Origin: Picosynechococcus sp. PCC 7003
GTDB lineage: Bacteria; Cyanobacteriota; Cyanobacteriia; Cyanobacteriales; MRBY01
Length of the DNA: 64,000 nucleotides
NCBI RefSeq assembly: GCF_001693255.1
Contig: NZ_CP016474.1
Coordinates: 1,010,661 to 1,074,660, forward strand
Direction of reading: 5' to 3'
In this document: piece after piece, positions 20,931 to 22,484 of the stretch
Layout of the letters: each line of letters starts with the position of its first letter
How positions within the stretch are numbered: the first letter of the stretch is position 1
Notes under the pieces: model-generated
The model's input: the letters and a program-made list of their open reading frames with translations, nothing else
What the model was told of the DNA's origin: nothing
The model's database searches: none
Position numbers and translations under genes: made by a program

Positions 20931-21143
20931 GGTAGGGCGAAGTTTCCTGGTAGGGAGATGGTGGACGAAATCGAGGAGATTGGCGCAGTGGGAAGCCGCG
21001 TTTGTGGGTCTAGGAAATCAGTGAAATTTTGAGGACTAGGATAAAAAAATAAGTGAAATGTTAAGAAAAAAGACGACGTAATCTATTTTACCGAAAAATT
21101 GGGTCTAAAGCCCCGTCCCTTCAGCAAGCTCAAGACAAGCCTT

Positions 21144-21290
21144 CTAGGACGGCTTTTTCTTTATCTTAAGGGATCGAATGTACTCTCTTAAGACATCAGA
21201 CTTAGATCGCCCAGTGAATTTGCAATAGGCTTCAAGCCTCTCAAACTCTTCATCTGCCAACCTAAAAAACACGCTTTTCTTCATTGTCAT
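21144..21290 (-). CDS. Small ribbon-helix-helix (CopG/Arc-type) DNA-binding protein
   Basis: A 48-residue protein reading MTMKKSVFFRLADEEFERLE, AYCKFTGRSKSDVLREYIRS, then a basic tail LKIKKKPS. The short beta strand (KSVFFRL), helix (ADEEFERLEAYCKFTG), the S-K-S-D helix cap and second helix (SDVLREYIRSL) are the ribbon-helix-helix pattern of Arc/CopG repressors, which bind palindromes as dimers of dimers. It diverges from tnpB with 29 bases between the start codons, and its start codon overlaps a perfect inverted repeat. I infer it represses itself and tnpB. The second methionine (21284) could also start translation. GC-rich sequence after the stop may form a terminator. Confidence 0.7.
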   Translation of the reverse strand: MTMKKSVFFRLADEEFERLEAYCKFTGRSKSDVLREYIRSLKIKKKPS

Positions 21291-21314
21291 TGTATATCGA
21301 TATGATATACAATG
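21288..21314. promoter_or_regulatory. 11-bp perfect inverted repeat between RHH gene and tnpB (candidate operator)
   Basis: CATTGTATATC (21288-21298) and GATATACAATG (21304-21314) are perfect inverted arms separated by GATAT. The repeat overlaps the start codon of the RHH gene and ends five bases before the tnpB ATG (21320). Dimeric RHH repressors use such sites. Alternatively the repeat could be a left-end hairpin recognised by TnpA. Confidence 0.6.
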
Positions 21315-21319
21315 GTAGC

Positions 21320-22444
21320 ATGAGAACCCTAAAGTTCAAGCTCTATCAAAGCAAGCGGAATCGACATCTCAAGCGCAGTATCAATGCGGCTGGGGTGATC
21401 TATAACCACTGCATAGCACTTCACAAACGGTACTACCGAATGTGGGGGGAGCACTTGAACTGCAACAAACTTCAGAGCCATATTGCCAAGTTGCGGAAAC
21501 GAACCCCGTTTTGGCAAACGATAGGATCTCAGGCGGTACAAGATATCTGTCAGCGTATTGAGAAAGCCTACCGACTGTTCTTTAAGCATCAAAAAAAAGG
21601 AGTTAGACCGCCCGGATTTAAGAAGGTCAAACGATACAAGTCGTTCACCCTGAAACAAGCCGGGTACAAATTCTTAGGCGGGAATCGAATCAAAATCGGG
21701 AACAAGATCTATCAATATTGGAATTCCAGACCGATAGAGGGAGCGGTCAAAACTTTAACTATTAAACGGACTCCACTTGGAGAATTGTTTTTGGTTGTGG
21801 TCATAGATAGCGCGGATGAGTTAGAAACCAAATTCGAGACAGGTAACATCGCTGGATTTGACTTTGGACTCAAGACGTTTCTTACTTGCTCGGATGGAAC
21901 TCAAATTGAGTCACCACAATTCCTAAAACAATCGATTCACGCCATCAAGAAAGCCAGTCGTCAGCACTCCAAGAAACCTAAAGGATCCGCCAATCGAGAA
22001 CGTGCCAGACTGAACCTAGTTCGTAAGCATGAAGATGTGGTGAATCGTCGGTCTGACTGGTTCTGGAAACTCGCCCATGAATTAACCAACAAGTTTGATG
22101 TGCTCTGTTTCGAGACATTAAATTTGAAAGGAATGCAACGGTTGTGGGGGCGAAAGGTTTCTGATCTGGCATTTGGAGACTTTCTTCGGATCCTTAAATG
22201 GGTCGCCACAAAGAAAGGGAAGCAAGTTGTGTTCATCGACCGTTGGTATCCCAGTTCTAAGACTTGCAACCACTGTGGTCATGTGTTGGAAAGCTTGGAT
22301 CTCAACACTAGAGAATGGCGTTGTCTGTCCTGCCAGTCGGTCAATGGGCGTGATGAAAATGCAGCCAAAAATATTTGTACGGTTGGGGCATCAACCGTTA
22401 AGTTAGGTGATGTTAGACAGGCAAAGCCTGCAATTGCTGTCTGA
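21320..22444 (+). CDS. tnpB: TnpB, RNA-guided nuclease of IS200/IS605 family
   Basis: 374 residues from ATG 21320. The N-terminus MRTLKFKLYQSKRNRHLKRS with helix-turn-helix region is typical. The RuvC triad is intact: D181 in GFDFGLKTF, E265 in CFETLNLKG, D345 in NGRDENAAKN. The inserted zinc finger is present (C316-x2-C319 and C335-x2-C338). TnpB cleaves DNA guided by an omega RNA made from the element right end. An upstream in-frame frame extends to 21284 but overlaps the palindrome and RHH start. No frameshift or premature stop is seen; the gene looks functional. The omega RNA should overlap the 3' end and the hairpin at 22454-22474. Confidence 0.93.
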   Translation: MRTLKFKLYQSKRNRHLKRSINAAGVIYNHCIALHKRYYRMWGEHLNCNKLQSHIAKLRKRTPFWQTIGSQAVQDICQRIEKAYRLFFKHQKKGVRPPGFKKVKRYKSFTLKQAGYKFLGGNRIKIGNKIYQYWNSRPIEGAVKTLTIKRTPLGELFLVVVIDSADELETKFETGNIAGFDFGLKTFLTCSDGTQIESPQFLKQSIHAIKKASRQHSKKPKGSANRERARLNLVRKHEDVVNRRSDWFWKLAHELTNKFDVLCFETLNLKGMQRLWGRKVSDLAFGDFLRILKWVATKKGKQVVFIDRWYPSSKTCNHCGHVLESLDLNTREWRCLSCQSVNGRDENAAKNICTVGASTVKLGDVRQAKPAIAV

Positions 22445-22484
22445 GCTTAGAATCCCCATGCGTTCACGCCGGGGAGTATGTCAA
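22445..22484 (+). ncRNA. Probable 3' scaffold of TnpB omega RNA / element right end
   Basis: Directly after the tnpB stop: AGAAT, then the hairpin CCCCATGCG-TTCA-CGCCGGGG and AGTATGTCAA. In IS200/IS605 systems the omega RNA ends at the right boundary and its guide is the flanking DNA just beyond it. The exact boundary is not known here; GTATGTCAA is proposed because the solo element at 3.15 kb ends alike. Confidence 0.5.

What the first reader, a model, noticed from the sequence alone, without database searches (positions are those of the whole stretch)
21144..21320. TnpB element with a divergent ribbon-helix-helix gene and a shared palindrome
A 48-residue RHH protein, too short for usual ORF cut-offs, is encoded back-to-back with an intact tnpB. 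Between them is an 11-bp perfect inverted repeat (CATTGTATATC/GATATACAATG) overlapping the RHH start codon and ending five bases before the tnpB ATG. This is the layout of an autoregulated repressor-operator pair. It would make TnpB nuclease expression repressible by an element-encoded regulator, in an element lacking tnpA.
Basis: partly seen in the sequence, partly recalled or inferred. Interest (0 to 1): 0.75.

Follow-up and report, generated by a model that had tools for sequence, protein, structure and literature searches.

The report
Repressor gene paired with TnpB nuclease
A small DNA-binding protein gene sits back-to-back with the RNA-guided nuclease gene of a cyanobacterial jumping element, in the place where a transposase gene lies in related elements, and comparisons suggest, without yet proving, that it switches the nuclease gene off.

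Summary
Observation confirmed. An RHH (CopG-like) gene lies 35 nt from, and divergent to, tnpB inside one 1393-bp IS605-type element (21092-22484; empty site in a relative) without tnpA. The pairing recurs: 9 of 9 RHH hits in the genome (about three independent elements), 15 of 29 fetched loci in other genomes of the order, 48 of 80 in the genome collection. From the tnpB side, 19 of 30 close tnpBs have a divergent RHH gene and 5 a divergent tnpA there. RHH is under purifying selection (dN/dS 0.08-0.09). The conserved operator unit is TATATC-N5-GATATA, not the full 11-bp arm; it overlaps the predicted -10 boxes of both genes. Types I and II differ cleanly in operator half-site even across two TnpB groups; other types are less clear. 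Best explanation: a minimal CopG-like autorepressor that throttles tnpB, and perhaps its mRNA-derived guide RNA. Binding and repression are inferred, not shown. Nine literature searches listed no paper seen to describe this. New variant of a known kind: an IS200/IS605 element with an apparently exchangeable repressor-operator cassette in the tnpA slot.

The parts
21092..22484 (.). Whole IS605-type element, 1393 bp, inserted 3' of TTAC (21088-21091) without target duplication
   Evidence: Empty site TTTTAC|TGAATTC in a same-genus genome (L178), flanks 90% and 88% identical
21092..21170 (.). Left end with a GC-rich imperfect palindrome (GCCCCGTCC...CTAGGACGGC); the last RHH codons and stop (KPS-stop) are read through it
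   Evidence: Sequence; similar left ends in RHH-bearing relatives; right boundary approximate
21144..21284 (-). RHH (CopG-like) gene, 46 aa from the conserved MKKSV start (48 aa from the alternative ATG at 21290)
   Evidence: PF01402 E 1.6e-5; start conserved in relatives; dN/dS about 0.08 in its type; model best match CopG-DNA 1ea4, E 0.15
21291..21296 (-). Putative -10 of the RHH gene (TATACA), ending 6 nt before the ATG at 21284
   Evidence: TATA[CT]N ends 5-6 nt before the RHH ATG in 17 of 19 type I regions; pattern chosen after inspection, and a plain best match to TATAAT in the same call gave scattered distances
21288..21314 (.). Inverted repeat CATTGTATATC-GATAT-GATATACAATG
   Evidence: p = 0.003 by shuffling
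21293..21309 (.). Conserved operator core TATATC-N5-GATATA (half-sites 21293-21298 and 21304-21309)
   Evidence: Full dyad in 17 of 19 type I regions; TATATC or GATATA in 19/19 type I, 0/17 type II, but also 4/7 type III regions; only copy of the dyad in the 64-kb window
21284..21289 (+). Putative -35 of tnpB (TTGTCA)
   Evidence: TTGTCA-18-TACAAT, 10 of 12 matches (1 site found; shuffles give mean 2.2, so weak on its own)
21308..21313 (+). Putative -10 of tnpB (TACAAT), ending 6 nt before the ATG; predicts a leaderless tnpB mRNA
   Evidence: the best -10 match ends exactly 6 nt before tnpB ATG in 44 of the 56 regions of 24-45 nt
21320..22444 (+). tnpB, 374 aa, RNA-guided nuclease; RuvC and zinc-ribbon motifs look intact by eye
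   Evidence: NF040570 E 2.3e-69; phmmer hit to the TnpB structure 8bf8, E 3.6e-38
22450..22484 (+). Right end hairpin and end of the inferred omegaRNA scaffold (GAATCCCC...CGGGGAGTATGTCAA)
   Evidence: Sequence and similar right ends in relatives; boundary; omegaRNA role inferred; no Rfam match up to E 1

Best explanation
The element carries its own transcriptional brake. The 46-aa RHH protein forms dimers (inferred from the fold) that bind two half-sites, TATATC and GATATA, about one helical turn apart. Each half-site overlaps a predicted -10 box: one of tnpB, the other facing it and belonging to the RHH gene. Binding would block both promoters at once, so RHH would repress itself and tnpB. 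Published work on another TnpB shows that the enzyme makes its guide RNA from its own mRNA (PMC10278001, abstract and passages), so the same switch may also lower the guide. Because RHH is diffusible, copies with the same operator would damp each other, and tnpB would be expressed in a burst when the element enters a cell without the repressor or when RHH is diluted. The RHH gene plus operator occupies the slot that holds tnpA in related elements, so these are non-autonomous elements that would have to move with a transposase supplied from elsewhere. Supported by comparison: the layout, co-conservation, selection on RHH, a different operator for RHH types I and II, and the slot exchange. Inferred: dimer binding, repression, guide control, the burst and the copy-number logic.
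For: Co-conservation: 9 of 9 RHH hits in the own genome (E<=1; seven are copies of one element) lie divergently beside tnpB; 15 of 29 fetched loci in other genomes of the order (in one, L044, tnpB is deleted internally); 48 of 80 in the genome collection, with no tnpB hit in another arrangement; 5 of 8 viral-contig loci. These sets overlap in organisms. From the tnpB side, 19 of 30 have a divergent RHH gene. Selection: median dN/dS 0.08 in type I (24 pairs from 14 sequences) and 0.09 in type II (76 pairs from 17), maximum 0.19. Position: the best -10 match ends exactly 6 nt before tnpB ATG in 44 of 56 regions; 77% have a 5/6 match ending at 4-9 nt against 6% shuffled. Repeats: inverted repeats with p<=0.05 in 20 of 75 regions and direct repeats in 15 of 75, 3.75 each expected. 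Operator and RHH: type I half-site in 19/19 type I (12 with TnpB group A, 7 with B) and 0/17 type II; type II half-site in 16/17 type II (13/14 with A, 3/3 with B) and 0/19 type I. Partial rank correlation of operator with RHH, TnpB held fixed, 0.36 (0 of 500 permutations). Fold: best structural match CopG-DNA 1ea4, TM 0.70/0.76, probability 0.97. Slot: L022 and L003-L009 share left end (about 90%) and tnpB-right end (84-86%) but have tnpA or RHH in between.
Against: No binding, expression or mutation data; promoters are predicted only. The operator also correlates with TnpB when RHH is held fixed (partial 0.27, 0 of 500), and the median operator similarity for same RHH/different TnpB (0.253, 102 pairs) is only a little above same TnpB/different RHH (0.2125, 231 pairs), so shared descent explains part of the pattern. 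The half-site motifs were chosen after seeing the data and are not all specific: the type I motif also occurs in 4 of 7 type III regions and the type V motif in several other types. Taken singly, 55 of 75 regions have no inverted repeat at p<=0.05. Inverted repeats also lie between divergent tnpA and tnpB in tnpA-bearing elements. The Foldseek E-value is weak (0.15). In type II the apparent RHH -10 lies most often (6 of 15) only 3 nt from the ATG. Some RHH genes are truncated (L032, L141, L161), and many tnpBs have none (L011-L017 in the own genome; L192, L193). 14 of 29 and 23 of 80 RHH loci show no tnpB.
Confidence: 0.75

Rival explanations
1. The RHH protein is a transposition accessory factor that binds the element's ends and helps or limits TnpA supplied in trans, as RHH relaxosome proteins do at plasmid origins (recalled).
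For: The protein is RHH and has weak, sub-threshold hits to TraY and NikA families; the gene takes the tnpA slot.
Against: In the window element TATATC and GATATA each occur once, at the intergenic dyad, and not near the ends (exact matches only).
Confidence: 0.08
2. A toxin-antitoxin-like pair: RHH neutralises TnpB protein directly and only secondarily regulates transcription.
For: Structural neighbours include RHH antitoxins; divergent layout; NCBIfam RelB-like hits far below cut-off.
Against: The protein has only 8 residues beyond helix 2, so there is no C-terminal partner-binding arm of the sort known from RHH antitoxins (recalled). RHH types I and II each occur with TnpB groups A and B, and group A occurs with types I-IV, which argues against a dedicated protein interface, though types V, VI and VII were each seen with one TnpB group only.
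Confidence: 0.07
3. RHH represses only itself; the overlap with the tnpB promoter is a by-product of compact divergent promoters.
For: Very short intergenic regions force overlap; many related RHH genes have no tnpB neighbour.
Against: In type I the right half-site overlaps the tnpB -10; RHH is under purifying selection although the window element has no other gene than tnpB.
Confidence: 0.08
4. The inverted repeat is only two face-to-face AT-rich -10 boxes and is not bound by RHH; the RHH gene is a passenger.
For: The outer arms are mostly not symmetric beyond shuffled expectation in relatives; tnpA-bearing elements also have intergenic inverted repeats; the type I motif overlaps the -10 and turns up in 4 of 7 type III regions.
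Against: dN/dS 0.08-0.09; repeat type and sequence differ between RHH types (inverted in I and II; direct repeats of 11-bp period significant in 4/7 type III, 2/6 type IV, 3/7 type VI), which promoters alone do not predict.
Confidence: 0.07

Closest known systems
IS200/IS605 family, tnpB-only (IS1341-type) elements
   Same: tnpB with a right-end hairpin, insertion 3' of TTAC without target duplication, no tnpA
   Different: Carries an RHH gene and putative operator in the place of the divergent tnpA; no paper seen in nine searches describes this layout
CopG repressor of plasmid pMV158 (PDB 1ea4, 1b01, 2cpg)
   Same: Minimal RHH fold of about 45 aa (best structural match); proposed autorepression at a site inside a promoter and proposed copy-number role (pMV158 biology recalled)
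   Different: Proposed to control an RNA-guided nuclease gene on a transposon, and is divergent rather than co-transcribed
RHH antitoxins of type II toxin-antitoxin systems
   Same: RHH fold, adjacent partner gene, autoregulation (recalled for antitoxins, inferred here)
   Different: No C-terminal toxin-binding extension; the partner is TnpB; DNA-level rather than protein-level control proposed
cis inhibition of TnpB by its own mRNA (PMC10278001, abstract and passages)
   Same: A brake on TnpB activity encoded by the element
   Different: That is an RNA effect; here the proposal is a trans-acting transcriptional repressor
TldR, TnpB-related RNA-guided repressors (title and start of abstract of PMC13418256 in the listing; otherwise recalled)
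   Same: Links TnpB-family genes with transcriptional repression
   Different: There the TnpB relative is the repressor; here TnpB keeps nuclease motifs and is the proposed target of repression

Membership tests
IS200/IS605 (tnpB-bearing) element | Encodes TnpB | tested here: met
   NF040570 234.6 bits against a cut-off of 100
IS200/IS605 (tnpB-bearing) element | Insertion 3' of a short target with no duplication, with an empty site elsewhere | tested here: met
   TTTTAC|TGAATTC in L178
IS200/IS605 (tnpB-bearing) element | Y1 transposase tnpA (absent in tnpB-only members) | tested here: not met
   No tnpA within 21092-22484; Y1_Tnp search of the genome gives one full-length hit on contig C3 and one partial hit elsewhere. 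Absence is compatible with the tnpB-only subgroup
Ribbon-helix-helix (CopG/Arc/MetJ) protein | RHH domain by profile | tested here: met
   PF01402 25.1 bits against a cut-off of 20.5
Ribbon-helix-helix (CopG/Arc/MetJ) protein | N-terminal strand then two helices, CopG-like fold | tested here: inconclusive
   pLDDT 87.6, helices 11-24 and 28-38, no strand assigned in the monomer model; 1ea4 TM 0.70/0.76, probability 0.97, but E 0.15
CopG-like autorepressor | Repeat operator inside its own promoter | tested here: inconclusive
   Half-sites overlap both putative -10 boxes; promoters are predicted, not mapped
CopG-like autorepressor | Specific DNA binding and repression | not testable with these tools
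   Needs gel shift and transcript measurements
Type II toxin-antitoxin RHH antitoxin | C-terminal toxin-binding region (recalled as defining) | tested here: not met
   46 aa, ends 8 residues after helix 2

The most novel reading that the evidence does not exclude
Cyanobacterial TnpB elements include a class of nuclease-plus-repressor elements: an exchangeable RHH-operator cassette has repeatedly taken the place of tnpA and acts as a shared, copy-number-sensing switch for the RNA-guided nuclease and its guide, so the elements persist quietly in residents, fire on entry into naive cells or plasmids, and move with borrowed transposase.
Probability: 0.4. Interest if true: 0.78.

Novelty: new variant of a known kind. 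Interest (0 to 1): 0.64.

Why it matters
How TnpB expression is controlled in nature is, as far as the papers seen show, largely open; the control described in the passages read is post-transcriptional (PMC10278001). An element-encoded candidate repressor with a located candidate operator makes transcriptional control directly testable. If true it would help explain how tnpB-only elements tolerate carrying a DNA-cutting enzyme, and would give small natural repressor-promoter pairs, in several types, for controlling TnpB tools. The genes are easy to miss at about 46 codons: in two plasmid records looked at, the RHH gene beside tnpB was not annotated.

Tried and rejected
Chance pairing: rejected. 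End-binding accessory factor: exact half-sites not found elsewhere in the element. Full 11-bp arm as operator: not conserved outside the core. Known RNA family in the element: no Rfam match up to E 1. PDB sequence search with RHH: one irrelevant hit at E 0.047, replaced by a fold search. Outside cyanobacteria: in 5 non-cyanobacterial plasmid loci with related tnpBs my profile found no RHH; 2 had co-directional tnpA. These 5 were picked by me from 60 listed of 68 records: a small sample, not a survey. Two cyanobacterial plasmid loci also lacked RHH (L192, L193), and one plasmid RHH hit lacked tnpB (L168). Of 8 viral-contig loci 3 lacked tnpB (L170, L175, L176). PF01402 did not reach E 0.01 for representatives of RHH types II, IV, V, VI and for L047; these rest on similarity to the linked family. 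RHH types are my own labels by N-terminal motif. The TnpB, tnpA and RHH profiles in scripts were built here from few sequences (tnpA from one, L022), so misses are possible. In one search the RHH profile was widened once with its own hits; 26 of 104 pairs were dropped as duplicates. One search used 54 of 78 pairs, one search used 75 and one search used 56 (length and completeness filters). An earlier count said 16 of 29, which should be 15; entry 4 says 18/19 for the type I dyad, which should be 17/19.

Full report
WHAT IS THERE. A minus-strand RHH gene (PF01402, E 1.6e-5) and tnpB (NF040570, E 2.3e-69) are divergent, with a perfect 11-bp inverted repeat between them. In relatives the RHH protein starts at MKKSV, so the likely start codon here is 21282-21284, with a 35-nt gap to tnpB. 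A genome of the same genus has the uninterrupted site TTTTAC|TGAATTC (L178). This defines the element as 21092-22484, 1393 bp, inserted 3' of TTAC without duplication. The RHH gene is inside the element and its stop codon lies in the left-end palindrome (sequence). There is no tnpA in the element. A Y1_Tnp search of the genome gives one full-length hit, on contig C3, and one partial hit.

CO-CONSERVATION. In the own genome the RHH query gives 9 hits at E<=1 and all 9 lie beside a divergent tnpB. Seven of these are copies of a second element (94.9-100% identical to L007), so independent cases are about three. In 148 genomes of the order, 77 have RHH hits at E<=1e-4. Of the 29 loci fetched from other genomes, 15 have a divergent tnpB, including the six best-scoring ones (L028-L033); in one of the 15 (L044) tnpB is internally deleted; 14 have none. 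In the genome collection 180 relatives were found and the best 80 kept, all cyanobacterial as I read the record titles; several come from the same genome and some are the same places as. 48 of 80 have divergent tnpB within 600 nt (44 of them within 65 nt), and no tnpB hit lies in another arrangement. Of the 32 without a hit, 3 are at a contig edge (L080, L081, L132). By eye six more show tnpB pieces or a TnpB outside my profile (L076, L078, L083, L088, L095, L134; L083 confirmed as NF040570). In the other 23 no tnpB was seen. In viral contigs 5 of 8 loci have the pair. From the tnpB side, 24 of 291 cyanobacterial genomes have a relative of the window TnpB at E<=1e-70. Of 30 loci (own included), 19 have a divergent RHH gene, 5 a divergent tnpA and 6 neither by these profiles; in none were both found. 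Two of the six (L141, L148) were recovered with the widened profile; L139 looks like an RHH start by eye.

THE SLOT. L022 on contig C3 has divergent tnpA and tnpB. The seven L003-L009 copies share its left end (about 90% over 87-93 nt) and tnpB to right end (84-86% over about 1270 nt), but in between they have RHH and a different promoter region with no alignment. Within the window's own TnpB group the slot holds RHH types I, II, III, IV or tnpA. The simplest reading is exchange of a gene-plus-operator cassette with tnpA; which came first was not tested. L007, L008 and L009 are 100% identical over 1513 bp at different sites, so RHH-tnpB elements have moved recently without their own tnpA, presumably with transposase in trans (inference).

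OPERATOR AND PROMOTER. The dataset is 104 pairs, 78 unique. In the 56 regions of 24-45 nt the best -10-like hexamer ends exactly 6 nt before the tnpB ATG in 44, which predicts leaderless tnpB mRNA; 77% have a 5/6 match ending at 4-9 nt, against 6% in shuffled regions. Longer regions (about 50-61 nt, mostly with TnpB groups B and E) were not in that count. For type I, TATA[CT]N ends 5-6 nt before the RHH ATG in 17 of 19; that pattern was chosen after inspection, and a plain best match to TATAAT gave scattered distances. Each half-site of TATATC-N5-GATATA thus overlaps one putative -10 box. By shuffling, inverted repeats reach p<=0.05 in 20 of 75 regions and direct repeats in 15 of 75, with 3.75 expected for each; most regions taken singly are not significant. 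Types I and II use inverted half-sites (7/19 and 8/17 significant); direct repeats with an 11-bp period are significant in 4/7 type III, 2/6 type IV and 3/7 type VI. Types I and II separate cleanly across TnpB groups A and B: type I motif 19/19 in type I and 0/17 in type II; type II motif 16/17 in type II and 0/19 in type I. Other motifs are less specific: the type I motif is also in 4 of 7 type III regions, and the type V motif in several types (motifs chosen after inspection). A partial rank correlation of operator with RHH is 0.36 with TnpB fixed (0/500), but operator also tracks TnpB with RHH fixed (0.27, 0/500), and the medians for same RHH/different TnpB (0.253) and same TnpB/different RHH (0.2125) differ little. 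Outer arm positions are mostly not more complementary than shuffled columns. tnpA-bearing elements also have intergenic inverted repeats, so a repeat alone is not proof of an RHH operator.

SELECTION AND FOLD. Median dN/dS is 0.08 (type I, 24 pairs from 14 sequences) and 0.09 (type II, 76 pairs from 17), maximum 0.19; only pairs with synonymous differences between 0.15 and 0.7 per site were used. A model (pLDDT 87.6, pTM 0.57) matches CopG bound to DNA best (1ea4, TM 0.70/0.76, probability 0.97, E 0.15).

MECHANISM. The proposal is that RHH represses itself and tnpB at one shared operator. Purified TnpB was shown to make its guide RNA from its own mRNA (PMC10278001, abstract and passages); if that holds here the guide is controlled too. 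Cross-damping between copies and a burst on entry to naive cells follow logically and are untested. TnpB helps element spread in plasmids (PMC11870625, passages), which gives a reason to keep but restrain it.

KNOWN OR NEW. Nine literature searches of the held library (five of them name RHH or CopG) listed no paper that I saw to describe an RHH gene with tnpB. Passages of PMC3119063, PMC8303175, PMC8987985, PMC6563490 and PMC9956272 were read and describe none; the other listed papers were seen as listings only. The library lacks many subscription papers, so absence is not proof. In two plasmid records the RHH gene beside tnpB was not annotated. Five non-cyanobacterial loci had none, so the pairing may be mainly cyanobacterial, but this was not surveyed.

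VERDICT. A real, recurrent, selected gene pair; a repressor of tnpB is the best explanation (0.75). It is a new variant of a known kind.

Noticed in passing
G000 contig C1, L003-L009: Seven copies of a second RHH-tnpB element (94.9-100% identical to L007), all with TGAAC at the left boundary (target or element end not resolved) and without tnpA: recent movement, possibly with transposase from L022 on contig C3.
   Followed up: partly
L140, L144, L150, L153, L164 (upstream of tnpB): tnpA-bearing relatives of the window element have a different intergenic inverted repeat (GTAGAT...ATCTAC type in four, weaker in L144) of unknown role.
   Followed up: partly
L032, about 1581-1627: Inverted repeat with 21-bp perfect arms spanning both start codons beside a truncated RHH frame.
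   Followed up: no
L102, L105, L106, L108, L109, L118: A related RHH gene lies 35 nt from, and divergent to, an open frame of 87-99 aa conserved among these loci; the L102 copy has no NCBIfam match. Possibly another RHH-controlled gene.
   Followed up: no
L083, L095: A much more divergent TnpB (416 aa in L083, NF040570; cut short in L095) also lies divergent to an RHH gene, with GTACAA at a similar place.
   Followed up: partly
L011-L017 in the own genome: Seven tnpB genes have neither divergent RHH nor tnpA by my profiles, with what looks like the left end close to tnpB in several.
   Followed up: partly
L167, 2906-5141 (Nostoc plasmid pTCL26-01_C): Eleven tandem annotated copies (the last cut) of a 51-codon ORF with a 211-bp period, beside an RHH gene and tnpB remnant.
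   Followed up: no
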